Positions 1 to 32,560 of a stretch of 64,000 bases of DNA are shown piece after piece (positions within the stretch are counted from its first letter, which is position 1; every line of letters starts with the position of its first letter). The notes under the pieces were generated by a model, which saw nothing but the letters and a program-made list of their open reading frames with translations, was not told the DNA's origin and did not search any database. This DNA is from Aphrocallistes beatrix (lineage: Eukaryota; Porifera; Hexactinellida; Sceptrulophora; Aphrocallistidae), in NCBI GenBank assembly GCA_963281255.1, contig OY725493.1:3255857-3319856 (forward strand), in the 5' to 3' direction. The position numbers were made by a program, and so were the translations under genes.

Positions 1-595
1 GTCCGAAGAACGAGTCTCTAAGAAGCGCGCTCGAGATACCGCCTTTGAAGAGGCAAAGACGCATGGAGACATCAAACGATTTTGCATGGATAACATCGCG
101 GATATCCAATGGGCACAGAAGGCCGCAGCCTACCTGCCATCTTATGAGGGACGCCGCGAAGTTATCTGGCTGTACGGAGCTAGTGGAGTTGGAAAGTCCA
201 CCACCCCCTGGAAGTACCTCAAGAAGCTTGGACACGGGGTGTTCATCAAGAAGCCCCACACCAAGTTTCACGAGGGATACCTCGGAGAACCAGTCGTCAT
301 CTGGGATGAGTACAGCTCTGACATGCCCCTCGGTGACTTCCTCCACCTCACTTCAACCATCCCAACGAAAGTTGAAGTCAAAGGGGCCGCGATGCCCTGG
401 GACTGCCGGCTGCTCGTCATTACAAGCAATGAGTCACCTTTTGAGAACTATTGCCAGGCTCGTGAAAAGAACGCTGATAAAGACACCGCTTTTAGAAGAA
501 GATTTAAGAAGTATTATCTCGATGAAGAAACTTCTTACGAAGATATTGAAAAAATATTAGATAGCCATATTAGTGTACTGAATGATAAGATATAA
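1..595 (+). CDS. rep: Partial CRESS-DNA Rep, forward copy 1 (cut by window edge)
   Basis: Same protein as the copy at 1053-1649. The window begins at the last base of the start codon, so the frame opens at base 2 (TCC). It shows that the array continues to the left. Confidence 0.8.
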   Translation, partial: SEERVSKKRARDTAFEEAKTHGDIKRFCMDNIADIQWAQKAAAYLPSYEGRREVIWLYGASGVGKSTTPWKYLKKLGHGVFIKKPHTKFHEGYLGEPVVIWDEYSSDMPLGDFLHLTSTIPTKVEVKGAAMPWDCRLLVITSNESPFENYCQAREKNADKDTAFRRRFKKYYLDEETSYEDIEKILDSHISVLNDKI

Positions 596-655
596 ATTAA
601 ATAGTTAGAAGGCAATCTTCCCTATATTTCCGATTAAAAGCGAAGGTTGGGGGGT

Positions 656-680
656 CCGGGGGGGCTTGCCTACCCCCCGG
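656..680. repeat. GC-rich inverted repeat downstream of Rep in each unit
   Basis: CCGGGGGG and CCCCCCGG arms around a nine-base loop can form an 8-bp GC stem, about 60 bases after the Rep stop codon. Long G runs just before it (GGGGGG, GGGGGGG) stand out in an AT-rich genome. It may be a second replicon structure or a transcription stop; no function can be proven here. It repeats every 1054 bp. Confidence 0.5.
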
Positions 681-741
681 CATGGCTACTGCTTGCAGTT
701 GCCTTAAGTTACAAGACAGAGCGGCGCCCCGCCGGCCAACG

Positions 742-774
742 ACAGATGTCAGTGTAGTATTACCTGACATCTGT
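742..774 (+). promoter_or_regulatory. Rolling-circle replication origin hairpin with nonanucleotide TAGTATTAC
   Basis: A perfect 11-bp stem (ACAGATGTCAG at 742-752 and CTGACATCTGT at 764-774) encloses an 11-base loop that contains TAGTATTAC at 755-763. In circoviruses, geminiviruses and nanoviruses this nonanucleotide is where Rep nicks, between T7 and A8. The same hairpin recurs in every unit: 1796-1828, 2850-2882 and 3904-3936 forward; 5460-5492, 6514-6546, 7568-7600, 8622-8654, 9676-9708, 10730-10762, 11784-11816, 12838-12870 and 13892-13924 reverse. A half hairpin lies against the gap at 4421. This is the strongest evidence that the array derives from a circular Rep replicon. Confidence 0.92.
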
Positions 775-800
775 GGAGCTATTTTCTGTGGAACTATTTT
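771..800 (+). promoter_or_regulatory. Iteron-like 15-bp tandem repeat next to the origin hairpin
   Basis: CTGTGGAGCTATTTT (771-785) is followed directly by CTGTGGAACTATTTT (786-800), one mismatch apart. The first repeat overlaps the end of the hairpin stem. Short tandem iterons beside the hairpin are the Rep-binding sites in many CRESS-DNA viruses, so this is the likely recognition sequence. It is present once per unit throughout the array. Function is inferred from position. Confidence 0.6.
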
Positions 801-1052
801 ATTTAACACAGGAGATGACGTTGACCATATATGGACAGAACATGCGTCGATCACGCTGTATATTGGTAACTATGGCAACGTTTCGTCGAGAATGGAATGT
901 ATATTTTAAACTGATTCTAAAAATAACTCGACGGAAGATGCACGGGGGCTGAAAAGATCCTTCCGCGGGCTCATTGGGAAAAGCGCAGAGGGACCCCTAA
1001 AGAAGCCGCTACTTACTGCAAGAAGGACGGACACTGGCGAGAAAGAGGACTC

Positions 1053-1649
1053 ATGTCCGAAGAACGAGTCTCTAAGAAGCGCGCTCGAGATACCGCCTTT
1101 GAAGAGGCAAAGACGCATGGAGACATCAAACGATTTTGCATGGATAACATCGCGGATATCCAATGGGCACAGAAGGCCGCAGCCTACCTGCCATCTTATG
1201 AGGGACGCCGCGAAGTTATCTGGCTGTACGGAGCTAGTGGAGTTGGAAAGTCCACCACCCCCTGGAAGTACCTCAAGAAGCTTGGACACGGGGTGTTCAT
1301 CAAGAAGCCCCACACCAAGTTTCACGAGGGATACCTCGGAGAACCAGTCGTCATCTGGGATGAGTACAGCTCTGACATGCCCCTCGGTGACTTCCTCCAC
1401 CTCACTTCAACCATCCCAACGAAAGTTGAAGTCAAAGGGGCCGCGATGCCCTGGGACTGCCGGCTGCTCGTCATTACAAGCAATGAGTCACCTTTTGAGA
1501 ACTATTGCCAGGCTCGTGAAAAGAACGCTGATAAAGACACCGCTTTTAGAAGAAGATTTAAGAAGTATTATCTCGATGAAGAAACTTCTTACGAAGATAT
1601 TGAAAAAATATTAGATAGCCATATTAGTGTACTGAATGATAAGATATAA
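1053..1649 (+). CDS. rep: Partial CRESS-DNA Rep (SF3 helicase), reference copy
   Basis: A 198-residue open frame from the ATG. Known role of the family: Rep nicks the origin hairpin and unwinds DNA during rolling-circle replication in the nucleus. Visible parts: Walker A GASGVGKST near residues 61-69, Walker B VVIWDEY near 98-104, motif C ITSN near 141-144, and a basic FRRRFKK segment near 166 that fits the arginine-finger region. The same frame is open upstream of the ATG and includes YCKKDG, which fits rolling-circle endonuclease motif III. Only part of the endonuclease is present, so I call the gene a broken fossil. The N-terminal basic stretch SKKRAR could be a nuclear localisation signal. 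Family placement (circovirus, nanovirus/alphasatellite or unclassified CRESS) cannot be fixed by eye. Confidence 0.85.
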   Translation: MSEERVSKKRARDTAFEEAKTHGDIKRFCMDNIADIQWAQKAAAYLPSYEGRREVIWLYGASGVGKSTTPWKYLKKLGHGVFIKKPHTKFHEGYLGEPVVIWDEYSSDMPLGDFLHLTSTIPTKVEVKGAAMPWDCRLLVITSNESPFENYCQAREKNADKDTAFRRRFKKYYLDEETSYEDIEKILDSHISVLNDKI

Positions 1650-2106
1650 ATTAAATAGTTAGAAGGCAATCTTCCCTATATTTCCGATTAAAAGCGAAGG
1701 TTGGGGGGTCCGGGGGGGCTTGCCTACCCCCCGGCATGGCTACTGCTTGCAGTTGCCTTAAGTTACAAGACAGAGCGGCGCCCCGCCGGCCAACGACAGA
1801 TGTCAGTGTAGTATTACCTGACATCTGTGGAGCTATTTTCTGTGGAACTATTTTATTTAACACAGGAGATGACGTTGACCATATATGGACAGAACATGCG
1901 TCGATCACGCTGTATATTGGTAACTATGGCAACGTTTCGTCGAGAATGGAATGTATATTTTAAACTGATTCTAAAAATAACTCGACGGAAGATGCACGGG
2001 GGCTGAAAAGATCCTTCCGCGGGCTCATTGGGAAAAGCGCAGAGGGACCCCTAAAGAAGCCGCTACTTACTGCAAGAAGGACGGACACTGGCGAGAAAGA
2101 GGACTC

Positions 2107-2703
2107 ATGTCCGAAGAACGAGTCTCTAAGAAGCGCGCTCGAGATACCGCCTTTGAAGAGGCAAAGACGCATGGAGACATCAAACGATTTTGCATGGATA
2201 ACATCGCGGATATCCAATGGGCACAGAAGGCCGCAGCCTACCTGCCATCTTATGAGGGACGCCGCGAAGTTATCTGGCTGTACGGAGCTAGTGGAGTTGG
2301 AAAGTCCACCACCCCCTGGAAGTACCTCAAGAAGCTTGGACACGGGGTGTTCATCAAGAAGCCCCACACCAAGTTTCACGAGGGATACCTCGGAGAACCA
2401 GTCGTCATCTGGGATGAGTACAGCTCTGACATGCCCCTCGGTGACTTCCTCCACCTCACTTCAACCATCCCAACGAAAGTTGAAGTCAAAGGGGCCGCGA
2501 TGCCCTGGGACTGCCGGCTGCTCGTCATTACAAGCAATGAGTCACCTTTTGAGAACTATTGCCAGGCTCGTGAAAAGAACGCTGATAAAGACACCGCTTT
2601 TAGAAGAAGATTTAAGAAGTATTATCTCGATGAAGAAACTTCTTACGAAGATATTGAAAAAATATTAGATAGCCATATTAGTGTACTGAATGATAAGATA
2701 TAA
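2107..2703 (+). CDS. rep: Partial CRESS-DNA Rep, forward copy 3
   Basis: Identical in protein sequence to the copy at 1053-1649 and spaced 1054 bp from it. Part of the broken fossil array. Confidence 0.82.
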   Translation: MSEERVSKKRARDTAFEEAKTHGDIKRFCMDNIADIQWAQKAAAYLPSYEGRREVIWLYGASGVGKSTTPWKYLKKLGHGVFIKKPHTKFHEGYLGEPVVIWDEYSSDMPLGDFLHLTSTIPTKVEVKGAAMPWDCRLLVITSNESPFENYCQAREKNADKDTAFRRRFKKYYLDEETSYEDIEKILDSHISVLNDKI

Positions 2704-3160
2704 ATTAAATAGTTAGAAGGCAATCTTCCCTATATTTCCGATTAAAAGCGAAGGTTGGGGGGTCCGGGGGGGCTTGCCTACCCCCCGGCATGGCTACTGC
2801 TTGCAGTTGCCTTAAGTTACAAGACAGAGCGGCGCCCCGCCGGCCAACGACAGATGTCAGTGTAGTATTACCTGACATCTGTGGAGCTATTTTCTGTGGA
2901 ACTATTTTATTTAACACAGGAGATGACGTTGACCATATATGGACAGAACATGCGTCGATCACGCTGTATATTGGTAACTATGGCAACGTTTCGTCGAGAA
3001 TGGAATGTATATTTTAAACTGATTCTAAAAATAACTCGACGGAAGATGCACGGGGGCTGAAAAGATCCTTCCGCGGGCTCATTGGGAAAAGCGCAGAGGG
3101 ACCCCTAAAGAAGCCGCTACTTACTGCAAGAAGGACGGACACTGGCGAGAAAGAGGACTC

Positions 3161-3757
3161 ATGTCCGAAGAACGAGTCTCTAAGAAGCGCGCTCGAGATA
3201 CCGCCTTTGAAGAGGCAAAGACGCATGGAGACATCAAACGATTTTGCATGGATAACATCGCGGATATCCAATGGGCACAGAAGGCCGCAGCCTACCTGCC
3301 ATCTTATGAGGGACGCCGCGAAGTTATCTGGCTGTACGGAGCTAGTGGAGTTGGAAAGTCCACCACCCCCTGGAAGTACCTCAAGAAGCTTGGACACGGG
3401 GTGTTCATCAAGAAGCCCCACACCAAGTTTCACGAGGGATACCTCGGAGAACCAGTCGTCATCTGGGATGAGTACAGCTCTGACATGCCCCTCGGTGACT
3501 TCCTCCACCTCACTTCAACCATCCCAACGAAAGTTGAAGTCAAAGGGGCCGCGATGCCCTGGGACTGCCGGCTGCTCGTCATTACAAGCAATGAGTCACC
3601 TTTTGAGAACTATTGCCAGGCTCGTGAAAAGAACGCTGATAAAGACACCGCTTTTAGAAGAAGATTTAAGAAGTATTATCTCGATGAAGAAACTTCTTAC
3701 GAAGATATTGAAAAAATATTAGATAGCCATATTAGTGTACTGAATGATAAGATATAA
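3161..3757 (+). CDS. rep: Partial CRESS-DNA Rep, forward copy 4
   Basis: Identical in protein sequence to the reference copy. It is the last complete forward copy before the gap; the next start codon (4215) runs directly into N. Confidence 0.82.
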   Translation: MSEERVSKKRARDTAFEEAKTHGDIKRFCMDNIADIQWAQKAAAYLPSYEGRREVIWLYGASGVGKSTTPWKYLKKLGHGVFIKKPHTKFHEGYLGEPVVIWDEYSSDMPLGDFLHLTSTIPTKVEVKGAAMPWDCRLLVITSNESPFENYCQAREKNADKDTAFRRRFKKYYLDEETSYEDIEKILDSHISVLNDKI

Positions 3758-4220
3758 ATTAAATAGTTAGAAGGCAATCTTCCCTATATTTCCGATTAAA
3801 AGCGAAGGTTGGGGGGTCCGGGGGGGCTTGCCTACCCCCCGGCATGGCTACTGCTTGCAGTTGCCTTAAGTTACAAGACAGAGCGGCGCCCCGCCGGCCA
3901 ACGACAGATGTCAGTGTAGTATTACCTGACATCTGTGGAGCTATTTTCTGTGGAACTATTTTATTTAACACAGGAGATGACGTTGACCATATATGGACAG
4001 AACATGCGTCGATCACGCTGTATATTGGTAACTATGGCAACGTTTCGTCGAGAATGGAATGTATATTTTAAACTGATTCTAAAAATAACTCGACGGAAGA
4101 TGCACGGGGGCTGAAAAGATCCTTCCGCGGGCTCATTGGGAAAAGCGCAGAGGGACCCCTAAAGAAGCCGCTACTTACTGCAAGAAGGACGGACACTGGC
4201 GAGAAAGAGGACTCATGTCC

Positions 4221-4420
4221 NNNNNNNNNNNNNNNNNNNNNNNNNNNNNNNNNNNNNNNNNNNNNNNNNNNNNNNNNNNNNNNNNNNNNNNNNNNNNNNN
4301 NNNNNNNNNNNNNNNNNNNNNNNNNNNNNNNNNNNNNNNNNNNNNNNNNNNNNNNNNNNNNNNNNNNNNNNNNNNNNNNNNNNNNNNNNNNNNNNNNNNN
4401 NNNNNNNNNNNNNNNNNNNN
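4221..4420. other. Assembly gap (200 N) at the head-to-head turn of the array
   Basis: Two hundred N separate the forward and reverse arms. The left side stops at a Rep start and the right side resumes within an origin hairpin of the opposite orientation. The round length suggests a placeholder of unknown true size, so the number of units across the turn is not known. Confidence 0.97.
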
Positions 4421-4584
4421 TACTACACTGACATCTGTCGTTGGCCGGCGGGGCGCCGCTCTGTCTTGTAACTTAAGGCAACTGCAAGCAGTAGCCATGC
4501 CGGGGGGTAGGCAAGCCCCCCCGGACCCCCCAACCTTCGCTTTTAATCGGAAATATAGGGAAGATTGCCTTCTAACTATTTAAT

Positions 4585-5181
4585 TTATATCTTATCATTC
4601 AGTACACTAATATGGCTATCTAATATTTTTTCAATATCTTCGTAAGAAGTTTCTTCATCGAGATAATACTTCTTAAATCTTCTTCTAAAAGCGGTGTCTT
4701 TATCAGCGTTCTTTTCACGAGCCTGGCAATAGTTCTCAAAAGGTGACTCATTGCTTGTAATGACGAGCAGCCGGCAGTCCCAGGGCATCGCGGCCCCTTT
4801 GACTTCAACTTTCGTTGGGATGGTTGAAGTGAGGTGGAGGAAGTCACCGAGGGGCATGTCAGAGCTGTACTCATCCCAGATGACGACTGGTTCTCCGAGG
4901 TATCCCTCGTGAAACTTGGTGTGGGGCTTCTTGATGAACACCCCGTGTCCAAGCTTCTTGAGGTACTTCCAGGGGGTGGTGGACTTTCCAACTCCACTAG
5001 CTCCGTACAGCCAGATAACTTCGCGGCGTCCCTCATAAGATGGCAGGTAGGCTGCGGCCTTCTGTGCCCATTGGATATCCGCGATGTTATCCATGCAAAA
5101 TCGTTTGATGTCTCCATGCGTCTTTGCCTCTTCAAAGGCGGTATCTCGAGCGCGCTTCTTAGAGACTCGTTCTTCGGACAT
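4585..5181 (-). CDS. rep: Partial CRESS-DNA Rep, reverse copy 1
   Basis: First copy after the gap, on the opposite strand, same 198-residue protein. With the copy at 3161 it forms a head-to-head pair across the gap. Confidence 0.82.
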   Translation of the reverse strand: MSEERVSKKRARDTAFEEAKTHGDIKRFCMDNIADIQWAQKAAAYLPSYEGRREVIWLYGASGVGKSTTPWKYLKKLGHGVFIKKPHTKFHEGYLGEPVVIWDEYSSDMPLGDFLHLTSTIPTKVEVKGAAMPWDCRLLVITSNESPFENYCQAREKNADKDTAFRRRFKKYYLDEETSYEDIEKILDSHISVLNDKI

Positions 5182-5638
5182 GAGTCCTCTTTCTCGCCAG
5201 TGTCCGTCCTTCTTGCAGTAAGTAGCGGCTTCTTTAGGGGTCCCTCTGCGCTTTTCCCAATGAGCCCGCGGAAGGATCTTTTCAGCCCCCGTGCATCTTC
5301 CGTCGAGTTATTTTTAGAATCAGTTTAAAATATACATTCCATTCTCGACGAAACGTTGCCATAGTTACCAATATACAGCGTGATCGACGCATGTTCTGTC
5401 CATATATGGTCAACGTCATCTCCTGTGTTAAATAAAATAGTTCCACAGAAAATAGCTCCACAGATGTCAGGTAATACTACACTGACATCTGTCGTTGGCC
5501 GGCGGGGCGCCGCTCTGTCTTGTAACTTAAGGCAACTGCAAGCAGTAGCCATGCCGGGGGGTAGGCAAGCCCCCCCGGACCCCCCAACCTTCGCTTTTAA
5601 TCGGAAATATAGGGAAGATTGCCTTCTAACTATTTAAT

Positions 5639-6235
5639 TTATATCTTATCATTCAGTACACTAATATGGCTATCTAATATTTTTTCAATATCTTCGTAAG
5701 AAGTTTCTTCATCGAGATAATACTTCTTAAATCTTCTTCTAAAAGCGGTGTCTTTATCAGCGTTCTTTTCACGAGCCTGGCAATAGTTCTCAAAAGGTGA
5801 CTCATTGCTTGTAATGACGAGCAGCCGGCAGTCCCAGGGCATCGCGGCCCCTTTGACTTCAACTTTCGTTGGGATGGTTGAAGTGAGGTGGAGGAAGTCA
5901 CCGAGGGGCATGTCAGAGCTGTACTCATCCCAGATGACGACTGGTTCTCCGAGGTATCCCTCGTGAAACTTGGTGTGGGGCTTCTTGATGAACACCCCGT
6001 GTCCAAGCTTCTTGAGGTACTTCCAGGGGGTGGTGGACTTTCCAACTCCACTAGCTCCGTACAGCCAGATAACTTCGCGGCGTCCCTCATAAGATGGCAG
6101 GTAGGCTGCGGCCTTCTGTGCCCATTGGATATCCGCGATGTTATCCATGCAAAATCGTTTGATGTCTCCATGCGTCTTTGCCTCTTCAAAGGCGGTATCT
6201 CGAGCGCGCTTCTTAGAGACTCGTTCTTCGGACAT
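5639..6235 (-). CDS. rep: Partial CRESS-DNA Rep, reverse copy 2
   Basis: Same frame and protein as its neighbours at 1054-bp spacing; preceded on its own strand by an origin hairpin at 6514-6546. Confidence 0.82.
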   Translation of the reverse strand: MSEERVSKKRARDTAFEEAKTHGDIKRFCMDNIADIQWAQKAAAYLPSYEGRREVIWLYGASGVGKSTTPWKYLKKLGHGVFIKKPHTKFHEGYLGEPVVIWDEYSSDMPLGDFLHLTSTIPTKVEVKGAAMPWDCRLLVITSNESPFENYCQAREKNADKDTAFRRRFKKYYLDEETSYEDIEKILDSHISVLNDKI

Positions 6236-6692
6236 GAGTCCTCTTTCTCGCCAGTGTCCGTCCTTCTTGCAGTAAGTAGCGGCTTCTTTAGGGGTCCCTC
6301 TGCGCTTTTCCCAATGAGCCCGCGGAAGGATCTTTTCAGCCCCCGTGCATCTTCCGTCGAGTTATTTTTAGAATCAGTTTAAAATATACATTCCATTCTC
6401 GACGAAACGTTGCCATAGTTACCAATATACAGCGTGATCGACGCATGTTCTGTCCATATATGGTCAACGTCATCTCCTGTGTTAAATAAAATAGTTCCAC
6501 AGAAAATAGCTCCACAGATGTCAGGTAATACTACACTGACATCTGTCGTTGGCCGGCGGGGCGCCGCTCTGTCTTGTAACTTAAGGCAACTGCAAGCAGT
6601 AGCCATGCCGGGGGGTAGGCAAGCCCCCCCGGACCCCCCAACCTTCGCTTTTAATCGGAAATATAGGGAAGATTGCCTTCTAACTATTTAAT

Positions 6693-7289
6693 TTATATCT
6701 TATCATTCAGTACACTAATATGGCTATCTAATATTTTTTCAATATCTTCGTAAGAAGTTTCTTCATCGAGATAATACTTCTTAAATCTTCTTCTAAAAGC
6801 GGTGTCTTTATCAGCGTTCTTTTCACGAGCCTGGCAATAGTTCTCAAAAGGTGACTCATTGCTTGTAATGACGAGCAGCCGGCAGTCCCAGGGCATCGCG
6901 GCCCCTTTGACTTCAACTTTCGTTGGGATGGTTGAAGTGAGGTGGAGGAAGTCACCGAGGGGCATGTCAGAGCTGTACTCATCCCAGATGACGACTGGTT
7001 CTCCGAGGTATCCCTCGTGAAACTTGGTGTGGGGCTTCTTGATGAACACCCCGTGTCCAAGCTTCTTGAGGTACTTCCAGGGGGTGGTGGACTTTCCAAC
7101 TCCACTAGCTCCGTACAGCCAGATAACTTCGCGGCGTCCCTCATAAGATGGCAGGTAGGCTGCGGCCTTCTGTGCCCATTGGATATCCGCGATGTTATCC
7201 ATGCAAAATCGTTTGATGTCTCCATGCGTCTTTGCCTCTTCAAAGGCGGTATCTCGAGCGCGCTTCTTAGAGACTCGTTCTTCGGACAT
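6693..7289 (-). CDS. rep: Partial CRESS-DNA Rep, reverse copy 3
   Basis: Array copy with the same helicase motifs; origin hairpin of its unit at 7568-7600. Confidence 0.82.
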   Translation of the reverse strand: MSEERVSKKRARDTAFEEAKTHGDIKRFCMDNIADIQWAQKAAAYLPSYEGRREVIWLYGASGVGKSTTPWKYLKKLGHGVFIKKPHTKFHEGYLGEPVVIWDEYSSDMPLGDFLHLTSTIPTKVEVKGAAMPWDCRLLVITSNESPFENYCQAREKNADKDTAFRRRFKKYYLDEETSYEDIEKILDSHISVLNDKI

Positions 7290-7746
7290 GAGTCCTCTTT
7301 CTCGCCAGTGTCCGTCCTTCTTGCAGTAAGTAGCGGCTTCTTTAGGGGTCCCTCTGCGCTTTTCCCAATGAGCCCGCGGAAGGATCTTTTCAGCCCCCGT
7401 GCATCTTCCGTCGAGTTATTTTTAGAATCAGTTTAAAATATACATTCCATTCTCGACGAAACGTTGCCATAGTTACCAATATACAGCGTGATCGACGCAT
7501 GTTCTGTCCATATATGGTCAACGTCATCTCCTGTGTTAAATAAAATAGTTCCACAGAAAATAGCTCCACAGATGTCAGGTAATACTACACTGACATCTGT
7601 CGTTGGCCGGCGGGGCGCCGCTCTGTCTTGTAACTTAAGGCAACTGCAAGCAGTAGCCATGCCGGGGGGTAGGCAAGCCCCCCCGGACCCCCCAACCTTC
7701 GCTTTTAATCGGAAATATAGGGAAGATTGCCTTCTAACTATTTAAT

Positions 7747-8343
7747 TTATATCTTATCATTCAGTACACTAATATGGCTATCTAATATTTTTTCAATATC
7801 TTCGTAAGAAGTTTCTTCATCGAGATAATACTTCTTAAATCTTCTTCTAAAAGCGGTGTCTTTATCAGCGTTCTTTTCACGAGCCTGGCAATAGTTCTCA
7901 AAAGGTGACTCATTGCTTGTAATGACGAGCAGCCGGCAGTCCCAGGGCATCGCGGCCCCTTTGACTTCAACTTTCGTTGGGATGGTTGAAGTGAGGTGGA
8001 GGAAGTCACCGAGGGGCATGTCAGAGCTGTACTCATCCCAGATGACGACTGGTTCTCCGAGGTATCCCTCGTGAAACTTGGTGTGGGGCTTCTTGATGAA
8101 CACCCCGTGTCCAAGCTTCTTGAGGTACTTCCAGGGGGTGGTGGACTTTCCAACTCCACTAGCTCCGTACAGCCAGATAACTTCGCGGCGTCCCTCATAA
8201 GATGGCAGGTAGGCTGCGGCCTTCTGTGCCCATTGGATATCCGCGATGTTATCCATGCAAAATCGTTTGATGTCTCCATGCGTCTTTGCCTCTTCAAAGG
8301 CGGTATCTCGAGCGCGCTTCTTAGAGACTCGTTCTTCGGACAT
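7747..8343 (-). CDS. rep: Partial CRESS-DNA Rep, reverse copy 4
   Basis: Array copy with the same helicase motifs; origin hairpin of its unit at 8622-8654. Confidence 0.82.
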   Translation of the reverse strand: MSEERVSKKRARDTAFEEAKTHGDIKRFCMDNIADIQWAQKAAAYLPSYEGRREVIWLYGASGVGKSTTPWKYLKKLGHGVFIKKPHTKFHEGYLGEPVVIWDEYSSDMPLGDFLHLTSTIPTKVEVKGAAMPWDCRLLVITSNESPFENYCQAREKNADKDTAFRRRFKKYYLDEETSYEDIEKILDSHISVLNDKI

Positions 8344-8800
8344 GAGTCCTCTTTCTCGCCAGTGTCCGTCCTTCTTGCAGTAAGTAGCGGCTTCTTTAGG
8401 GGTCCCTCTGCGCTTTTCCCAATGAGCCCGCGGAAGGATCTTTTCAGCCCCCGTGCATCTTCCGTCGAGTTATTTTTAGAATCAGTTTAAAATATACATT
8501 CCATTCTCGACGAAACGTTGCCATAGTTACCAATATACAGCGTGATCGACGCATGTTCTGTCCATATATGGTCAACGTCATCTCCTGTGTTAAATAAAAT
8601 AGTTCCACAGAAAATAGCTCCACAGATGTCAGGTAATACTACACTGACATCTGTCGTTGGCCGGCGGGGCGCCGCTCTGTCTTGTAACTTAAGGCAACTG
8701 CAAGCAGTAGCCATGCCGGGGGGTAGGCAAGCCCCCCCGGACCCCCCAACCTTCGCTTTTAATCGGAAATATAGGGAAGATTGCCTTCTAACTATTTAAT

Positions 8801-9397
8801 TTATATCTTATCATTCAGTACACTAATATGGCTATCTAATATTTTTTCAATATCTTCGTAAGAAGTTTCTTCATCGAGATAATACTTCTTAAATCTTCTT
8901 CTAAAAGCGGTGTCTTTATCAGCGTTCTTTTCACGAGCCTGGCAATAGTTCTCAAAAGGTGACTCATTGCTTGTAATGACGAGCAGCCGGCAGTCCCAGG
9001 GCATCGCGGCCCCTTTGACTTCAACTTTCGTTGGGATGGTTGAAGTGAGGTGGAGGAAGTCACCGAGGGGCATGTCAGAGCTGTACTCATCCCAGATGAC
9101 GACTGGTTCTCCGAGGTATCCCTCGTGAAACTTGGTGTGGGGCTTCTTGATGAACACCCCGTGTCCAAGCTTCTTGAGGTACTTCCAGGGGGTGGTGGAC
9201 TTTCCAACTCCACTAGCTCCGTACAGCCAGATAACTTCGCGGCGTCCCTCATAAGATGGCAGGTAGGCTGCGGCCTTCTGTGCCCATTAGATATCCGCGA
9301 TGTTATCCATGCAAAATCGTTTGATGTCTCCATGCGTCTTTGCCTCTTCAAAGGCGGTATCTCGAGCGCGCTTCTTAGAGACTCGTTCTTCGGACAT
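8801..9397 (-). CDS. rep: Partial CRESS-DNA Rep, reverse copy 5
   Basis: Array copy with the same helicase motifs; origin hairpin of its unit at 9676-9708. Treated as a fossil copy like the others. Confidence 0.75.
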
Positions 9398-9854
9398 GAG
9401 TCCTCTTTCTCGCCAGTGTCCGTCCTTCTTGCAGTAAGTAGCGGCTTCTTTAGGGGTCCCTCTGCGCTTTTCCCAATGAGCCCGCGGAAGGATCTTTTCA
9501 GCCCCCGTGCATCTTCCGTCGAGTTATTTTTAGAATCAGTTTAAAATATACATTCCATTCTCGACGAAACGTTGCCATAGTTACCAATATACAGCGTGAT
9601 CGACGCATGTTCTGTCCATATATGGTCAACGTCATCTCCTGTGTTAAATAAAATAGTTCCACAGAAAATAGCTCCACAGATGTCAGGTAATACTACACTG
9701 ACATCTGTCGTTGGCCGGCGGGGCGCCGCTCTGTCTTGTAACTTAAGGCAACTGCAAGCAGTAGCCATGCCGGGGGGTAGGCAAGCCCCCCCGGACCCCC
9801 CAACCTTCGCTTTTAATCGGAAATATAGGGAAGATTGCCTTCTAACTATTTAAT

Positions 9855-10451
9855 TTATATCTTATCATTCAGTACACTAATATGGCTATCTAATATTTTT
9901 TCAATATCTTCGTAAGAAGTTTCTTCATCGAGATAATACTTCTTAAATCTTCTTCTAAAAGCGGTGTCTTTATCAGCGTTCTTTTCACGAGCCTGGCAAT
10001 AGTTCTCAAAAGGTGACTCATTGCTTGTAATGACGAGCAGCCGGCAGTCCCAGGGCATCGCGGCCCCTTTGACTTCAACTTTCGTTGGGATGGTTGAAGT
10101 GAGGTGGAGGAAGTCACCGAGGGGCATGTCAGAGCTGTACTCATCCCAGATGACGACTGGTTCTCCGAGGTATCCCTCGTGAAACTTGGTGTGGGGCTTC
10201 TTGATGAACACCCCGTGTCCAAGCTTCTTGAGGTACTTCCAGGGGGTGGTGGACTTTCCAACTCCACTAGCTCCGTACAGCCAGATAACTTCGCGGCGTC
10301 CCTCATAAGATGGCAGGTAGGCTGCGGCCTTCTGTGCCCATTGGATATCCGCGATGTTATCCATGCAAAATCGTTTGATGTCTCCATGCGTCTTTGCCTC
10401 TTCAAAGGCGGTATCTCGAGCGCGCTTCTTAGAGACTCGTTCTTCGGACAT
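9855..10451 (-). CDS. rep: Partial CRESS-DNA Rep, reverse copy 6
   Basis: Array copy with the same helicase motifs; origin hairpin of its unit at 10730-10762. Confidence 0.82.
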   Translation of the reverse strand: MSEERVSKKRARDTAFEEAKTHGDIKRFCMDNIADIQWAQKAAAYLPSYEGRREVIWLYGASGVGKSTTPWKYLKKLGHGVFIKKPHTKFHEGYLGEPVVIWDEYSSDMPLGDFLHLTSTIPTKVEVKGAAMPWDCRLLVITSNESPFENYCQAREKNADKDTAFRRRFKKYYLDEETSYEDIEKILDSHISVLNDKI

Positions 10452-10908
10452 GAGTCCTCTTTCTCGCCAGTGTCCGTCCTTCTTGCAGTAAGTAGCGGCT
10501 TCTTTAGGGGTCCCTCTGCGCTTTTCCCAATGAGCCCGCGGAAGGATCTTTTCAGCCCCCGTGCATCTTCCGTCGAGTTATTTTTAGAATCAGTTTAAAA
10601 TATACATTCCATTCTCGACGAAACGTTGCCATAGTTACCAATATACAGCGTGATCGACGCATGTTCTGTCCATATATGGTCAACGTCATCTCCTGTGTTA
10701 AATAAAATAGTTCCACAGAAAATAGCTCCACAGATGTCAGGTAATACTACACTGACATCTGTCGTTGGCCGGCGGGGCGCCGCTCTGTCTTGTAACTTAA
10801 GGCAACTGCAAGCAGTAGCCATGCCGGGGGGTAGGCAAGCCCCCCCGGACCCCCCAACCTTCGCTTTTAATCGGAAATATAGGGAAGATTGCCTTCTAAC
10901 TATTTAAT

Positions 10909-11505
10909 TTATATCTTATCATTCAGTACACTAATATGGCTATCTAATATTTTTTCAATATCTTCGTAAGAAGTTTCTTCATCGAGATAATACTTCTTAA
11001 ATCTTCTTCTAAAAGCGGTGTCTTTATCAGCGTTCTTTTCACGAGCCTGGCAATAGTTCTCAAAAGGTGACTCATTGCTTGTAATGACGAGCAGCCGGCA
11101 GTCCCAGGGCATCGCGGCCCCTTTGACTTCAACTTTCGTTGGGATGGTTGAAGTGAGGTGGAGGAAGTCACCGAGGGGCATGTCAGAGCTGTACTCATCC
11201 CAGATGACGACTGGTTCTCCGAGGTATCCCTCGTGAAACTTGGTGTGGGGCTTCTTGATGAACACCCCGTGTCCAAGCTTCTTGAGGTACTTCCAGGGGG
11301 TGGTGGACTTTCCAACTCCACTAGCTCCGTACAGCCAGATAACTTCGCGGCGTCCCTCATAAGATGGCAGGTAGGCTGCGGCCTTCTGTGCCCATTGGAT
11401 ATCCGCGATGTTATCCATGCAAAATCGTTTGATGTCTCCATGCGTCTTTGCCTCTTCAAAGGCGGTATCTCGAGCGCGCTTCTTAGAGACTCGTTCTTCG
11501 GACAT
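10909..11505 (-). CDS. rep: Partial CRESS-DNA Rep, reverse copy 7
   Basis: Array copy with the same helicase motifs; origin hairpin of its unit at 11784-11816. Confidence 0.82.
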   Translation of the reverse strand: MSEERVSKKRARDTAFEEAKTHGDIKRFCMDNIADIQWAQKAAAYLPSYEGRREVIWLYGASGVGKSTTPWKYLKKLGHGVFIKKPHTKFHEGYLGEPVVIWDEYSSDMPLGDFLHLTSTIPTKVEVKGAAMPWDCRLLVITSNESPFENYCQAREKNADKDTAFRRRFKKYYLDEETSYEDIEKILDSHISVLNDKI

Positions 11506-11962
11506 GAGTCCTCTTTCTCGCCAGTGTCCGTCCTTCTTGCAGTAAGTAGCGGCTTCTTTAGGGGTCCCTCTGCGCTTTTCCCAATGAGCCCGCGGAAGGA
11601 TCTTTTCAGCCCCCGTGCATCTTCCGTCGAGTTATTTTTAGAATCAGTTTAAAATATACATTCCATTCTCGACGAAACGTTGCCATAGTTACCAATATAC
11701 AGCGTGATCGACGCATGTTCTGTCCATATATGGTCAACGTCATCTCCTGTGTTAAATAAAATAGTTCCACAGAAAATAGCTCCACAGATGTCAGGTAATA
11801 CTACACTGACATCTGTCGTTGGCCGGCGGGGCGCCGCTCTGTCTTGTAACTTAAGGCAACTGCAAGCAGTAGCCATGCCGGGGGGTAGGCAAGCCCCCCC
11901 GGACCCCCCAACCTTCGCTTTTAATCGGAAATATAGGGAAGATTGCCTTCTAACTATTTAAT

Positions 11963-12559
11963 TTATATCTTATCATTCAGTACACTAATATGGCTATCTA
12001 ATATTTTTTCAATATCTTCGTAAGAAGTTTCTTCATCGAGATAATACTTCTTAAATCTTCTTCTAAAAGCGGTGTCTTTATCAGCGTTCTTTTCACGAGC
12101 CTGGCAATAGTTCTCAAAAGGTGACTCATTGCTTGTAATGACGAGCAGCCGGCAGTCCCAGGGCATCGCGGCCCCTTTGACTTCAACTTTCGTTGGGATG
12201 GTTGAAGTGAGGTGGAGGAAGTCACCGAGGGGCATGTCAGAGCTGTACTCATCCCAGATGACGACTGGTTCTCCGAGGTATCCCTCGTGAAACTTGGTGT
12301 GGGGCTTCTTGATGAACACCCCGTGTCCAAGCTTCTTGAGGTACTTCCAGGGGGTGGTGGACTTTCCAACTCCACTAGCTCCGTACAGCCAGATAACTTC
12401 GCGGCGTCCCTCATAAGATGGCAGGTAGGCTGCGGCCTTCTGTGCCCATTGGATATCCGCGATGTTATCCATGCAAAATCGTTTGATGTCTCCATGCGTC
12501 TTTGCCTCTTCAAAGGCGGTATCTCGAGCGCGCTTCTTAGAGACTCGTTCTTCGGACAT
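11963..12559 (-). CDS. rep: Partial CRESS-DNA Rep, reverse copy 8
   Basis: Array copy with the same helicase motifs; origin hairpin of its unit at 12838-12870. Confidence 0.82.
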   Translation of the reverse strand: MSEERVSKKRARDTAFEEAKTHGDIKRFCMDNIADIQWAQKAAAYLPSYEGRREVIWLYGASGVGKSTTPWKYLKKLGHGVFIKKPHTKFHEGYLGEPVVIWDEYSSDMPLGDFLHLTSTIPTKVEVKGAAMPWDCRLLVITSNESPFENYCQAREKNADKDTAFRRRFKKYYLDEETSYEDIEKILDSHISVLNDKI

Positions 12560-13016
12560 GAGTCCTCTTTCTCGCCAGTGTCCGTCCTTCTTGCAGTAAG
12601 TAGCGGCTTCTTTAGGGGTCCCTCTGCGCTTTTCCCAATGAGCCCGCGGAAGGATCTTTTCAGCCCCCGTGCATCTTCCGTCGAGTTATTTTTAGAATCA
12701 GTTTAAAATATACATTCCATTCTCGACGAAACGTTGCCATAGTTACCAATATACAGCGTGATCGACGCATGTTCTGTCCATATATGGTCAACGTCATCTC
12801 CTGTGTTAAATAAAATAGTTCCACAGAAAATAGCTCCACAGATGTCAGGTAATACTACACTGACATCTGTCGTTGGCCGGCGGGGCGCCGCTCTGTCTTG
12901 TAACTTAAGGCAACTGCAAGCAGTAGCCATGCCGGGGGGTAGGCAAGCCCCCCCGGACCCCCCAACCTTCGCTTTTAATCGGAAATATAGGGAAGATTGC
13001 CTTCTAACTATTTAAT

Positions 13017-13613
13017 TTATATCTTATCATTCAGTACACTAATATGGCTATCTAATATTTTTTCAATATCTTCGTAAGAAGTTTCTTCATCGAGATAATA
13101 CTTCTTAAATCTTCTTCTAAAAGCGGTGTCTTTATCAGCGTTCTTTTCACGAGCCTGGCAATAGTTCTCAAAAGGTGACTCATTGCTTGTAATGACGAGC
13201 AGCCGGCAGTCCCAGGGCATCGCGGCCCCTTTGACTTCAACTTTCGTTGGGATGGTTGAAGTGAGGTGGAGGAAGTCACCGAGGGGCATGTCAGAGCTGT
13301 ACTCATCCCAGATGACGACTGGTTCTCCGAGGTATCCCTCGTGAAACTTGGTGTGGGGCTTCTTGATGAACACCCCGTGTCCAAGCTTCTTGAGGTACTT
13401 CCAGGGGGTGGTGGACTTTCCAACTCCACTAGCTCCGTACAGCCAGATAACTTCGCGGCGTCCCTCATAAGATGGCAGGTAGGCTGCGGCCTTCTGTGCC
13501 CATTGGATATCCGCGATGTTATCCATGCAAAATCGTTTGATGTCTCCATGCGTCTTTGCCTCTTCAAAGGCGGTATCTCGAGCGCGCTTCTTAGAGACTC
13601 GTTCTTCGGACAT
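13017..13613 (-). CDS. rep: Partial CRESS-DNA Rep, reverse copy 9
   Basis: Array copy with the same helicase motifs; origin hairpin of its unit at 13892-13924, the last complete hairpin before the array ends. Confidence 0.82.
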   Translation of the reverse strand: MSEERVSKKRARDTAFEEAKTHGDIKRFCMDNIADIQWAQKAAAYLPSYEGRREVIWLYGASGVGKSTTPWKYLKKLGHGVFIKKPHTKFHEGYLGEPVVIWDEYSSDMPLGDFLHLTSTIPTKVEVKGAAMPWDCRLLVITSNESPFENYCQAREKNADKDTAFRRRFKKYYLDEETSYEDIEKILDSHISVLNDKI

Positions 13614-14070
13614 GAGTCCTCTTTCTCGCCAGTGTCCGTCCTTCTTGCAGTAAGTAGCGGCTTCTTTAGGGGTCCCTCTGCGCTTTTCCCAATGAGCCCG
13701 CGGAAGGATCTTTTCAGCCCCCGTGCATCTTCCGTCGAGTTATTTTTAGAATCAGTTTAAAATATACATTCCATTCTCGACGAAACGTTGCCATAGTTAC
13801 CAATATACAGCGTGATCGACGCATGTTCTGTCCATATATGGTCAACGTCATCTCCTGTGTTAAATAAAATAGTTCCACAGAAAATAGCTCCACAGATGTC
13901 AGGTAATACTACACTGACATCTGTCGTTGGCCGGCGGGGCGCCGCTCTGTCTTGTAACTTAAGGCAACTGCAAGCAGTAGCCATGCCGGGGGGTAGGCAA
14001 GCCCCCCCGGACCCCCCAACCTTCGCTTTTAATCGGAAATATAGGGAAGATTGCCTTCTAACTATTTAAT

Positions 14071-14667
14071 TTATATCTTATCATTCAGTACACTAATATG
14101 GCTATCTAATATTTTTTCAATATCTTCGTAAGAAGTTTCTTCATCGAGATAATACTTCTTAAATCTTCTTCTAAAAGCGGTGTCTTTATCAGCGTTCTTT
14201 TCACGAGCCTGGCAATAGTTCTCAAAAGGTGACTCATTGCTTGTAATGACGAGCAGCCGGCAGTCCCAGGGCATCGCGGCCCCTTTGACTTCAACTTTCG
14301 TTGGGATGGTTGAAGTGAGGTGGAGGAAGTCACCGAGGGGCATGTCAGAGCTGTACTCATCCCAGATGACGACTGGTTCTCCGAGGTATCCCTCGTGAAA
14401 CTTGGTGTGGGGCTTCTTGATGAACACCCCGTGTCCAAGCTTCTTGAGGTACTTCCAGGGGGTGGTGGACTTTCCAACTCCACTAGCTCCGTACAGCCAG
14501 ATAACTTCGCGGCGTCCCTCATAAGATGGCAGGTAGGCTGCGGCCTTCTGTGCCCATTGGATATCCGCGATGTTATCCATGCAAAATCGTTTGATGTCTC
14601 CATGCGTCTTTGCCTCTTCAAAGGCGGTATCTCGAGCGCGCTTCTTAGAGACTCGTTCTTCGGACAT
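14071..14667 (-). CDS. rep: Partial CRESS-DNA Rep, reverse copy 10 (last before the host junction)
   Basis: Final copy of the array. The upstream part of its unit continues to about 14843, where the array meets unrelated DNA, so this unit lacks its own upstream origin hairpin inside the array. Confidence 0.82.
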   Translation of the reverse strand: MSEERVSKKRARDTAFEEAKTHGDIKRFCMDNIADIQWAQKAAAYLPSYEGRREVIWLYGASGVGKSTTPWKYLKKLGHGVFIKKPHTKFHEGYLGEPVVIWDEYSSDMPLGDFLHLTSTIPTKVEVKGAAMPWDCRLLVITSNESPFENYCQAREKNADKDTAFRRRFKKYYLDEETSYEDIEKILDSHISVLNDKI

Positions 14668-14843
14668 GAGTCCTCTTTCTCGCCAGTGTCCGTCCTTCTT
14701 GCAGTAAGTAGCGGCTTCTTTAGGGGTCCCTCTGCGCTTTTCCCAATGAGCCCGCGGAAGGATCTTTTCAGCCCCCGTGCATCTTCCGTCGAGTTATTTT
14801 TAGAATCAGTTTAAAATATACATTCCATTCTCGACGAAACGTT

Positions 14844-15747
14844 TTTATCACGATCTATAGAGAAGTAATGTGATGCGACAAAATCCTAGATAACAACTTA
14901 TTGAAAATAGACATGTGAATAGTATTATTCTCATATAGGAAGTAATAGTTTGCGGATTAAATAGTATAATTTTTTAGTGTCTACGATCTATACTTTTCGA
15001 GTTATGGCTTAAACATGTAATTTTTTGTTTCCATAGCAACTGAGGAATGCATAGACATTCCAACTAAAATTTTCAGATTTTTTGACTTGAGGTCTACCTA
15101 TTGTTGCTCCATCAAAAAATCAAGCATTAGAAATGCAGATAATGATGTTTATTATGAGCTAGAACAGCAACATTTTCCGCTCTAAAAAGAGCCTATTGCG
15201 GAATCACATGATGACATATCAAATTTTTGACAGCGGAATTGGATACTCTGATATAATGTTTGTATATGGTAATAATACATTTCAAATGTCTATCGGAAGC
15301 GGTTTTTGATTTATCAGTCTAATTGAAATTTGACTTTGTAAAAACTGGCCTCTTCGTTTTGTAGCCTTCTCGGTGACATATATAGCCGTATATTAAGTAG
15401 GCCATGGACTGATACAACTTAAATATGATGAGTTAAGAATATTTGTAAAGGATAATGAAAAAATATTTACTGCCAATAATTTCCGGAAAAAGTTTTGACA
15501 CCAGACGAAAATGTCGAGTCATCATGGAATTATGACGACATTGTCACATTTTATTTTTTGCATTTGTTATGCCCATTTAATCAATTATGGGACCATTTCA
15601 AAAAAGATTTTTTCTGTGATTACGATTTTAACCGAAAATCCGAAATATCTATTTTGGGCACACAATCCTCGTATCTCAACTATCAAAATGTATAGCTAGA
15701 CTCATAAAATTATCAATCCATCCTTTAGTAGACACTGTATTAAAGTT
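14844..15747. other. AT-rich flank of the viral array, no gene seen
   Basis: About 900 bases of AT-rich DNA with no convincing coding frame. The short frames at 15495-15699 fall inside a fragment that matches, in reverse complement, the Helitron-like family described below (around 15507-15560). AGTAGACACTGTA at 15728-15740 resembles the end of a Tc1/mariner-type element and has a counterpart at about 23405, but I could not define an element. Confidence 0.4.
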
Positions 15748-31221: not shown

Positions 31222-32560
31222 CTACGGGCGTTCAAAAAGTCCTAGTCCCATGTCTATAATTTCATTATTACATTAAATATCTAAAAGAATGGCATTACAT
31301 TTTCTCGATATAATCACCCTTACACTCTATAACCCGTTTAAGTCGAGATAACCAGTCGAAAAATACTTGTTTGTAGTCTTCTTGTGGAATGGACTTTAGG
31401 GATCTCCAAACGGCGTTTCCCAGGTCGATTCTGTTCTTAAAATGCTTGCCTGCAAGGTCTTTCTTTAGTCTCGCGAACAACCAGAAGTCGCAAGGAGCAA
31501 GGTCTGGTGAGTAGGGCGGATGCTCTAGCTCGGTTACCTACATACTCTCCAATACTGACTTCACGAGCTTGGTTTTGTGAGGCCTAGCATTATCATGTAG
31601 AAGCTTGAGGCCTCTTGGTCCAGACTTAGGCCTTCGCTCCCAGTAGTATTTCTCGACTTCTGATAGACAGTTGTAGGCATACAATTCTCCATTAATTGTT
31701 TTACCCTTTGGAACAATAATTTGGGCTACTGGACCTTGTGCATCAAAAAAAATCGAATAGAGAACCTTCGGGTCTCTGAAATCGGGCCTTGGAATAAGCG
31801 GAGGCCGCTCTCCCTTCAGTACCCACACCTTGTTTTTTTCTTTAGAAAGGGGCACGTCATACTTGATCCATGTTTCATCTCCCGTAATTATTTCAGATAA
31901 TCTCCTTGGATCAGCATTGTCATACTCCGCTAGGAGATTGCGAGCACACAATACCCGATGGTCCTTTTGGGAATCTGTGAGATTGTGTGGGATCCATCTG
32001 GAACAAATTTTACTAGCATGCATCTTATCAACTAGAATGCCATGAGCTGCTCCCGTTGACATCCCAAGATGCATAGCTATCTCATCCACAGTTATATGTG
32101 GATCTTCTTCCACCAACCGCCTAACCTCAAGGATATTCCCACTTGAGCTGACCGATTTGGGCCTACCGCTCCGGAAGCCATCTTCCAACGACTCCTGCCC
32201 CTCACGAAAGTGCTTCGCCCAGTATTTAACGTTGGAATAAGATGGACTGTCATCTTTATATACCATCTGAGGGTCAGCAAGTATATCACTTGGAGAACGC
32301 CCGAGTAGTGTACGTATTTTGATGTAAGCTCTTTGCTCGAGTTTGAAATCAGTTTCCATTTTCAATCAAAATTATCAAGATAGTCAAAACAGTGTGTAAA
32401 TAAATAAGCACAGATTAAAAAGTATACGAGTTGGCGCTATCAACTCAGTAGCGTTTGATAGACAAGTATTGTGGCTAAGTAATATACCAGTAATGCTATA
32501 GTGAACTAGCCTAGACGCGATTATAGAGACTAGGGTCTAAGACTTATTGAACGCCCGTAG
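31222..32560 (-). mobile_element. Complete mariner transposon (1339 bp)
   Basis: Inverted ends CTACGGGCGTTCAAAAAGTC (31222) and, in complement, CTACGGGCGTTCAATAAGTC (ending 32560) are flanked by TA at 31220-31221 and 32561-32562. A full-length transposase lies inside on the minus strand. Confidence 0.95.
31295..32359 (-). pseudogene. Mariner transposase (DD34D) with a single in-frame stop
   Basis: The frame from ATG 32359 encodes about 354 residues: N-terminal paired-type helix-turn-helix region (SNVKYWAKHFREGQESLEDG, DEIAMHLGMSTGAAHGIL), then the catalytic core with ITGDETWI (first D), LLHDNARPH (second D) and YSPDLAPCDFWLF (third D). The second and third D are 34 residues apart, the mariner DD34D signature. 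Its length matches the usual ~345 residues. One TAG at 31538-31540 interrupts an otherwise open frame that resumes immediately and ends at 31295. With one break and intact ends it is one of the youngest elements here; the protein could not be made without readthrough. Confidence 0.93.

What the first reader, a model, noticed from the sequence alone, without database searches (positions are those of the whole stretch)
1..14843. Multi-copy chromosomal array of a Rep-only ssDNA replicon fossil
About 14 near-identical 1054-bp units, each with a Rep helicase and a perfect circovirus/geminivirus-style origin hairpin, sit in a repeat-rich animal chromosome. Most endogenous CRESS sequences are single decayed Rep copies; a young, homogeneous tandem array with the origin in every unit is unusual. 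The unit length fits a satellite-sized or sub-genomic circle. Possible origins are rolling-circle concatemer integration or amplification after integration.
Basis: partly seen in the sequence, partly recalled or inferred. Interest (0 to 1): 0.92.

Follow-up and report, generated by a model that had tools for sequence, protein, structure and literature searches.

The report
Mirrored virus-origin array inside a transposon
An animal chromosome carries at least 18 almost identical 1,054-base copies of a crippled small-DNA-virus replicon, laid out as two mirror-image rows inside one copy of a common palindromic transposon; it looks like a very recent capture of viral DNA, similar to arrays known from tobacco but arranged differently.

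Summary
The array is real, but it is not the simple tandem array described. Each 1054-bp unit holds a perfect stem-loop origin (TAGTATTAC), two 15-bp iteron-like repeats and an open frame for the C-terminal part of a CRESS-virus Rep (SF3 helicase plus motif III). Nuclease motifs I and II are missing and no capsid gene was found. The units run + up to a 200-N gap (4221-4420) and - after it; the left half continues 4.4 kb beyond the window (C7:3251463). In all, 18.06 units are assembled and one base varies. Both ends join the same point of the unit to the same half of an abundant ~1.1-kb palindromic transposon. A matching 7-bp target-site duplication (GACTGAT) encloses the ~20 kb, which ties both flanks to one insertion and argues against a scaffold misjoin. 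The transposon halves share private mutations and differ at 1 of 563 bp; the array halves at 1 of 8614 bp. So one old arm plus its array was recently copied in mirror image. A 98%-identical protein with the same truncation sits on a 1090-bp contig elsewhere. Closest precedents: GRD arrays in Nicotiana and tandem circovirus genomes in cyprinid fish. Verdict: new variant of a known kind.

The parts
1..4220 (+). Visible part of the left half-array: 1054-bp units, rep sense on +. It continues left of the window to C7:3251463; the whole left half is 8614 bp, 8.17 units.
4221..4420 (.). Run of exactly 200 N, taken to be a scaffold gap; true length and content of the middle of the array unknown.
4421..14843 (-). 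Right half-array, 10423 bp, 9.89 units, mirror image of the left half (1 difference in 8614 bp compared).
742..774 (+). Stem-loop origin of one unit (11-bp perfect stem, TAGTATTAC at 755-763); next ones at 1796, 2850, 3904; 17 complete copies in both halves together.
771..800 (+). Two 15-bp iteron-like direct repeats (CTGTGGARCTATTTT) at 771 and 786, the first overlapping the 3' end of the stem; 17 pairs in both halves.
927..1646 (+). Open frame of 240 codons in one unit: Rep motif III region (AATYCKKDG) running into the SF3 helicase; nuclease motifs I and II absent.
1053..1649 (+). 198-aa ATG ORF (helicase part, PF00910) within that frame; equivalent ORFs in other units, e.g. 14071-14667 on -.
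8801..9397 (-). The rep frame of the one variant unit: a single-base change puts a stop at codon 37 of the 198-codon ORF; the other units listed are open.
14844..14876 (+). Loop (33 bp) of the palindromic transposon; the array joins exactly at its start, and a mirror copy lies at the left end of the array.
14877..15406 (+). Right arm (terminal inverted repeat) of the palindromic transposon; the mirror left arm with its loop lies at C7:3250900-3251462, 1 mismatch in 563.
15407..15413 (.). Right copy of the 7-bp target-site duplication GACTGAT; left copy at C7:3250893-3250899.

Best explanation
A satellite-sized, already truncated CRESS replicon (origin plus C-terminal Rep, no nuclease motifs I/II, no capsid gene) entered the germline as a head-to-tail concatemer that joined the loop base of an old copy of a palindromic (foldback-like) transposon. 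Arm, loop and array were then copied in mirror image, so that a large inverted array now lies between two nearly identical transposon ends. SHOWN: units, truncation, mirror symmetry of the two assembled halves, identical junctions on both sides, shared private arm mutations, one matching 7-bp target-site duplication round the whole. INFERRED: that rolling-circle replication by a helper Rep made the concatemer; that capture was by end-joining at a hairpin-prone break; that the mirror copy arose by fold-back or inverted-repeat-templated copying. My favoured version of the last step is that the inverted dimer, having two good transposon ends, moved as one unit to its present site. The locus is probably a non-replicating fossil now, because its Rep lacks the nicking motifs.
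For: Junction AACGTTTCG|TTTATCACG (unit start | loop start, each read away from the join) is the same on both sides. Mirror halves differ at 1 of 8614 bp, arms at 1 of 563. The array arms share 19 non-majority columns (7 of them in none of the 32 other arms compared; four of the seven are one 4-bp gap) and differ at 1; 14 ordinary copies share 2-12 and differ at 15-46, gaps counted. Shared private states reach to 43 bp from the outer tip, as expected if a whole arm was copied; at the one weakly diagnostic column both array arms carry the loop-side state. GACTGAT flanks both outer ends, and all 15 ordinary copies in which both ends were found carry an exact 7-bp duplication (of the 18 best-scoring ordinary loci, 3 gave no pair; in L023 two further pairings of unrelated ends gave none). 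The helicase-part probe hits 18 times and the origin-part probe 37 times (17 complete, 3 edge pieces, 17 weak antisense self-matches), all in this array. The same truncated 198-aa ORF, 98% identical over the 100-aa piece, is on a contig of 1090 bp elsewhere, so the truncation is not a local accident of this assembly. Viral_Rep matches only positions 54-81 of 82.
Against: The middle of the array is a 200-N gap, so the turning point was not seen. Only one array locus was found, so movement as a unit is not demonstrated; the 7-bp duplication could equally be that of the old transposon. The array/transposon junction lies 115 nt from the predicted nick (unit position 939/940, nick position recalled), so nothing links Rep nicking to the integration. 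The source of the 1090-bp contig is unknown; it could be another individual of the same species. No reads were available.
Confidence: 0.62

Rival explanations
1. Flip isomers: the array has one orientation, but recombination between the transposon's inverted arms flips it. The assembly took its left contig from one isomer or haplotype and its right contig from the other, so both ends show the same junction.
For: Inverted arms of ~530 bp flank the array; the two halves meet only at a gap; it needs no mirror duplication and explains near-identical arms if the crossover lay near the outer tips.
Against: Needs a crossover within ~43 bp of the outer tip to exchange all shared private states, and a mosaic of isomers. 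Neither probe found an array piece outside this array, and its two outermost pieces show the same junction; but the second junction could be missing from the assembly simply because the other isomer was left out.
Confidence: 0.2
2. Integration of one or a few units followed by tandem amplification in the chromosome (unequal exchange, replication slippage), rather than integration of a ready-made concatemer. Compatible with the mirror reading.
For: Tandem arrays can expand and homogenise; origins are unchanged in all complete units and the rep frame in all but one.
Against: Only 1 variable site in 18 units leaves no gradient of divergence that stepwise growth would leave; but a very young array looks the same either way.
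Confidence: 0.3
3. Assembly artefact: free circles or their concatemers in the sample were joined to chromosome contigs.
For: Near-perfect identity, a gap in the middle, and a closely related ORF on a contig of about one unit length elsewhere.
Against: Two separate contig ends show the identical junction inside a transposon whose outer ends carry a matching 7-bp duplication; unit and transposon share only a few bases at the join, far too little for overlap assembly.
Confidence: 0.06
4. The array is kept for a host function, for example as a source of antiviral small RNA or as decoy origins that titrate an invading virus's Rep.
For: Unchanged origins and iterons and mostly open helicase frames in an inverted (double-stranded-RNA-prone) layout.
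Against: The array is so young that intactness needs no selection; no expression data.
Confidence: 0.05

Closest known systems
Geminivirus-related DNA (GRD) arrays in Nicotiana
   Same: Multiple direct repeats in a chromosome, each with a truncated rep gene and an origin fragment (passages of PMC5014472; tandem layout also in passages of PMC7758297).
   Different: Those are degenerate begomovirus sequences in plants; here the Rep is of the PF02407 type, the copies are essentially identical, the array is mirrored, it lies inside a transposon, and the host is an animal.
Tandem endogenous circovirus genomes in cyprinid fish
   Same: Animal chromosome, circovirus-type ssDNA replicon, tandem arrangement (passages of PMC6372831).
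   Different: Those are complete genomes dated at over 39 million years; here a truncated unit with only a rep gene, very young.
Endogenous geminiviral EGV1 repeats in yam
   Same: Tandem repeats with partial rep and a stem-loop origin (passages of PMC5014472).
   Different: 2.6-kb repeats of a larger geminiviral segment in plants; no mirrored transposon context described in the passages seen.
Multi-copy Rep-like sequences in salmon louse and honeybee mite
   Same: Many copies (near sixty) of ssDNA-virus sequences in an invertebrate genome (passages of PMC3198968).
   Different: Most of those copies have unrelated flanks and are read as separate invasions; no array is described in the passages seen.
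Galileo-type foldback elements (P superfamily)
   Same: Long terminal inverted repeats and mostly 7-bp target-site duplications (passages of PMC4168063).
   Different: No transposase or sequence link was shown here; ordinary copies are ~1.1-kb palindromes.
Alphasatellites and nanovirus Rep components (recalled, no call)
   Same: About 1-1.4-kb Rep-only circles with a TAGTATTAC-type loop.
   Different: Their Rep is complete and plant-associated; here the nuclease motifs are missing and the host is an animal.
Geminivirus-like TIR transposon in Tuber melanosporum
   Same: A Rep-like sequence carried within terminal inverted repeats (passages of PMC3198968).
   Different: Multiple similar copies with transposase ORFs and no obvious target-site duplications; here one locus, no transposase recognised, an origin array as cargo, and a clear 7-bp duplication.

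Membership tests
CRESS DNA replicon (Cressdnaviricota-type Rep) | SF3 helicase domain with Walker motifs | tested here: met
   PF00910 E 1.6e-9 on the 100-aa piece; four solved viral Reps matched at E 8.5e-7 to 6.7e-5
CRESS DNA replicon (Cressdnaviricota-type Rep) | HUH nuclease motifs I and II | tested here: not met
   Viral_Rep profile matched only at positions 54-81 of 82; three-frame reading upstream shows no motif I/II (my reading); relatives P0003 and P0004 have both
CRESS DNA replicon (Cressdnaviricota-type Rep) | Motif III (YxxK type) | tested here: met
   AATYCKKDG aligned with YCKKDG of P0003-P0005; the piece is below Pfam's curated cut-off on its own, 23.4 versus 26 bits, E 7.4e-5
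CRESS DNA replicon (Cressdnaviricota-type Rep) | Stem-loop origin with nonanucleotide, plus iterons | tested here: met
   17 complete hairpins and repeat pairs; fold z -4.4
CRESS DNA virus | Capsid gene | tested here: not met
   Per unit, ORFs of 120 aa or more are the 198-aa rep ORF, a 171-aa ORF in another frame over it and a 164-aa antisense ORF; the last two have no Pfam match at E 0.1. A very divergent capsid could escape Pfam
Endogenous viral element | Host sequence on both sides at one site | tested here: met
   Transposon arms on both sides and a matching 7-bp duplication
Endogenous viral element | Junctions crossed by individual reads | not testable with these tools
   No reads held
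GRD-like truncated-rep arrays | Direct repeats of truncated rep plus origin | tested here: met
   against passages of PMC5014472
GRD-like truncated-rep arrays | Begomovirus ancestry | tested here: not met
   The nuclease remnant matches PF02407 Viral_Rep and no geminivirus family at E 0.001; loop TAGTATTAC, not TAATATTAC as in yam EGV1
Alphasatellite / nanovirus Rep component | Autonomous Rep-only circle of 1-1.4 kb | tested here: inconclusive
   Unit size fits, and 52 of 120 listed Reps of the search with P0003/P0004 sit on contigs under 1350 bp (counted by eye), but the Rep is truncated and circularity unknown
Galileo / P-superfamily transposon | 7-bp target-site duplication and long inverted repeats | tested here: met
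   15 of 15 ordinary copies with both ends found (of 18 loci looked at), plus the array copy; arms ~530 bp
Galileo / P-superfamily transposon | Cognate P-type transposase | tested here: inconclusive
   20 PF12017 matches in the genome, none linked to this palindrome

The most novel reading that the evidence does not exclude
A truncated Rep/origin mini-replicon that still circulates as a helper-dependent circle and colonises animal chromosomes by riding in foldback transposons. Inverted dimers of half-transposon plus concatemer transpose as one unit, and the many origins let a helper Rep from a related virus release circles again.
Probability: 0.12. Interest if true: 0.88.

Novelty: new variant of a known kind. 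Interest (0 to 1): 0.58.

Why it matters
Endogenous circovirus sequences in vertebrates are mostly rep-derived and rarely more than one per lineage outside carnivores (passages of PMC6372831). Here the units, both junctions, the host transposon and its target-site duplication are all still readable, so the order of events (truncation, concatemer, capture at a palindrome, mirror duplication) can be tested. It links three things usually studied apart: ssDNA-virus concatemers, palindrome instability and foldback-transposon mobility. The same truncated protein in another dataset makes it possible to ask whether such defective circles circulate as satellites.

Tried and rejected
Misjoined scaffold: rejected on the matching 7-bp duplication and identical junctions. 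Bacterial, plasmid or phage contamination: no match for the helicase piece in plasmids or phages; in prokaryote genome contigs 95 stretches matched a pattern but none was confirmed. Rep-nick-mediated junction: the transposon junction is 115 nt from the nick site. The 171-aa and 164-aa overlapping ORFs as further genes: no Pfam match. Loop-side versus loopless-side arm types: one weakly diagnostic column only. Viral contigs for DNA of relatives: four scans answered without a confirmed locus; a fifth request was not run because the alignment had no conserved stretch. Host identity: cox1 reads well under code 5 and there is one TTAGGG run, so an animal; the species is not settled because the ribosomal RNA search did not complete. 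An early guess in my notes (Caenorhabditis-like) was dropped. Three paper searches gave nothing I used. Corrections on recounting: an earlier count said 14 of 14 duplications, arms 563/563 and 40 or more copies; searches give 15 of 15, 562 of 563 and 38 places besides the two array flanks.
Full report
WHAT IS THERE. The window is G000:C7:3255857-3319856 of a 100.5-Mb, 28-contig assembly. Two mirror-image arrays of a 1054-bp unit meet at a run of 200 N (window 4221-4420). The left half (+) runs from C7:3251463 to the gap (8614 bp, 8.17 units); the right half (-) from the gap to window 14843 (10423 bp, 9.89 units). Measured against one natural unit, one base differs in all 19,037 bp; it puts a stop in the rep frame of that unit. 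A 330-bp helicase-part probe hits the genome 18 times, all in this array. The 331-bp origin-part probe gives 37 matches, all in this array: 17 complete copies, 3 partial copies at edges, and 17 weak antisense self-matches of the hairpin.

THE UNIT. It holds a perfect 11-bp stem with TAGTATTAC in the loop, two adjacent 15-bp repeats, and a 240-codon open frame. The frame matches the SF3 helicase family and solved viral Reps and, upstream, only the last third of the Viral_Rep profile (positions 54-81 of 82; 23.4 bits, below the curated 26). Motif III is there; motifs I and II are not, while the full-length relatives P0003 and P0004 show both. Two further ORFs of 120 aa or more overlap the rep ORF (171 aa, same strand, other frame; 164 aa, antisense); neither has a Pfam match. 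So the unit has a complete-looking origin but a Rep that, by established knowledge of HUH nucleases, should not nick.

RELATIVES. In about 5.8 billion proteins the helicase piece finds one relative (of 4 candidates; the search needs shared 5-residue words), P0002, 98% identical with the same truncated 198-aa ORF, on a 1090-bp contig. The piece at the nuclease end finds P0002 again and three Reps of 277-322 aa on contigs of 1037-1540 bp. A profile of two of these, without the window's sequence, finds 4893 proteins at E 1e-10 or better; of the 120 listed, 52 (counted by eye) lie on contigs under 1350 bp. That fits small Rep-only molecules but does not prove them, since contigs can be fragments. 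Four answered scans of viral contigs gave no confirmed locus.

THE SETTING. The 563 bp beyond 14843 are one half of a palindromic element found at 38 further places among the 40 candidates scored (of 523). An ordinary copy is about 1.1 kb: arm, 33-bp loop, arm. Of the 18 best-scoring ordinary loci, 15 showed both ends, and all 15 have an exact 7-bp target-site duplication (two extra pairings of unrelated ends in L023 gave none; 3 loci gave no pair). The array copy has GACTGAT on both outer sides, 20 kb apart. A chance match would be 1 in 16,384, so both flanks most likely belong to one insertion and the scaffold join is right in order and orientation.

THE MIRROR. Both ends of the array join the same base of the unit to the same base of the loop. 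The two arms differ at 1 of 563 bp. Between the array arms there are 19 shared non-majority columns and 1 difference; in 14 ordinary copies, 2-12 shared and 15-46 differences, gaps counted. Seven of the 19 columns occur in none of the 32 other arms compared (four of the seven are one 4-bp gap); the other 12 occur in 2-13 of them. Thus an arm that had aged like its relatives was copied, together with loop and at least 8.6 kb of array, in mirror image. Two differences in 9,177 mirrored bases, with an assumed rate of 1e-9 to 1e-8 per site and generation, give roughly ten thousand to a hundred thousand generations; gene conversion could make it look younger than it is.

MECHANISM. Shown: truncation, origin, homogeneity, identical junctions, mirror copy, single transposon insertion. 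Inferred: a helper Rep amplified the truncated circle into concatemers; one was joined to a break at the loop base of the palindrome, a place prone to hairpins and cleavage; fold-back or inverted-repeat-templated copying then made the inverted dimer. If this happened before the last transposition, the dimer had two sound transposon ends and could have moved as one unit, which would explain arms alike to within 43 bp of the tip and the intact duplication. If it happened in place, the copying must have run nearly to the outer tip. The data do not decide; I put the first at about 55 to 45.

AGAINST MY READING. The turning point is unseen; one locus only; no reads; flip isomers between inverted arms remain possible; P0002 may come from the same species. 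The junction is not at the nick site, so Rep need not have taken part in integration. The right contig ends 2 nt from the predicted nick (unit position 937 versus 939/940), which may be chance.

COMPARISON. The nearest precedent in design is GRD in Nicotiana (truncated rep plus origin in direct repeats; passages of PMC5014472); in host kingdom, complete circovirus genomes in tandem in cyprinid fish (passages of PMC6372831). In the passages seen and in the listings of six paper searches I found no mirror-image CRESS array inside a transposon with a target-site duplication; the library holds open-licence papers only, so this is not proof of absence.

SECOND FOSSIL. The genome holds one further Rep-like sequence, at C10:4841339 onward: a nuclease part over Pfam's cut-off and a weak helicase part in a different frame (PF00910 E 0.012, below the cut-off). 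It is distant from the array (29% identity in the helicase part, E 0.009), so this lineage met CRESS replicons more than once (inference).

Noticed in passing
G000:C10:4841339-4841927 (L034 about 3304-4180): A second, distant CRESS Rep-like sequence: nuclease part (PF02407 E 1.2e-14) with motif I-III-like stretches by my reading, and a weak helicase-like part in another frame.
   Followed up: partly
window 4421 (unit position 937): The right contig ends 2 nt from the predicted origin nick site; the left contig ends at unit position 182. Possibly chance, possibly where a structure stopped the assembly.
   Followed up: no
L009:5180-6553: A MULE-type ORF (PF10551) next to a RING-finger ORF (PF13920), bounded by rows of about 30-bp repeats in opposite orientation (my reading), left of the array's left flank.
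   Followed up: partly
L009:1867-2553: Reverse-transcriptase ORF (PF00078) on the minus strand in the left flank.
   Followed up: no
window 31538-32365: Mariner-type transposase ORF (PF01359; PF13565 and PF17906 weak).
   Followed up: no
window 59202-60941: Two adjacent ORFs: hAT C-terminal dimerisation region (PF05699) and a weak DUF659 match.
   Followed up: no
window 825-834: CCATATATGG, a CArG-box-like palindrome (name recalled) between origin and rep frame; by unit identity present in the other units.
   Followed up: no
G000:C28:3140-4480: Mitochondrial cox1 with 11 in-frame TGA; code 5 gives a conserved reading. Nearby frames look like nad3 upstream and cox2 downstream (my reading, not searched), which could help name the host.
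   Followed up: partly
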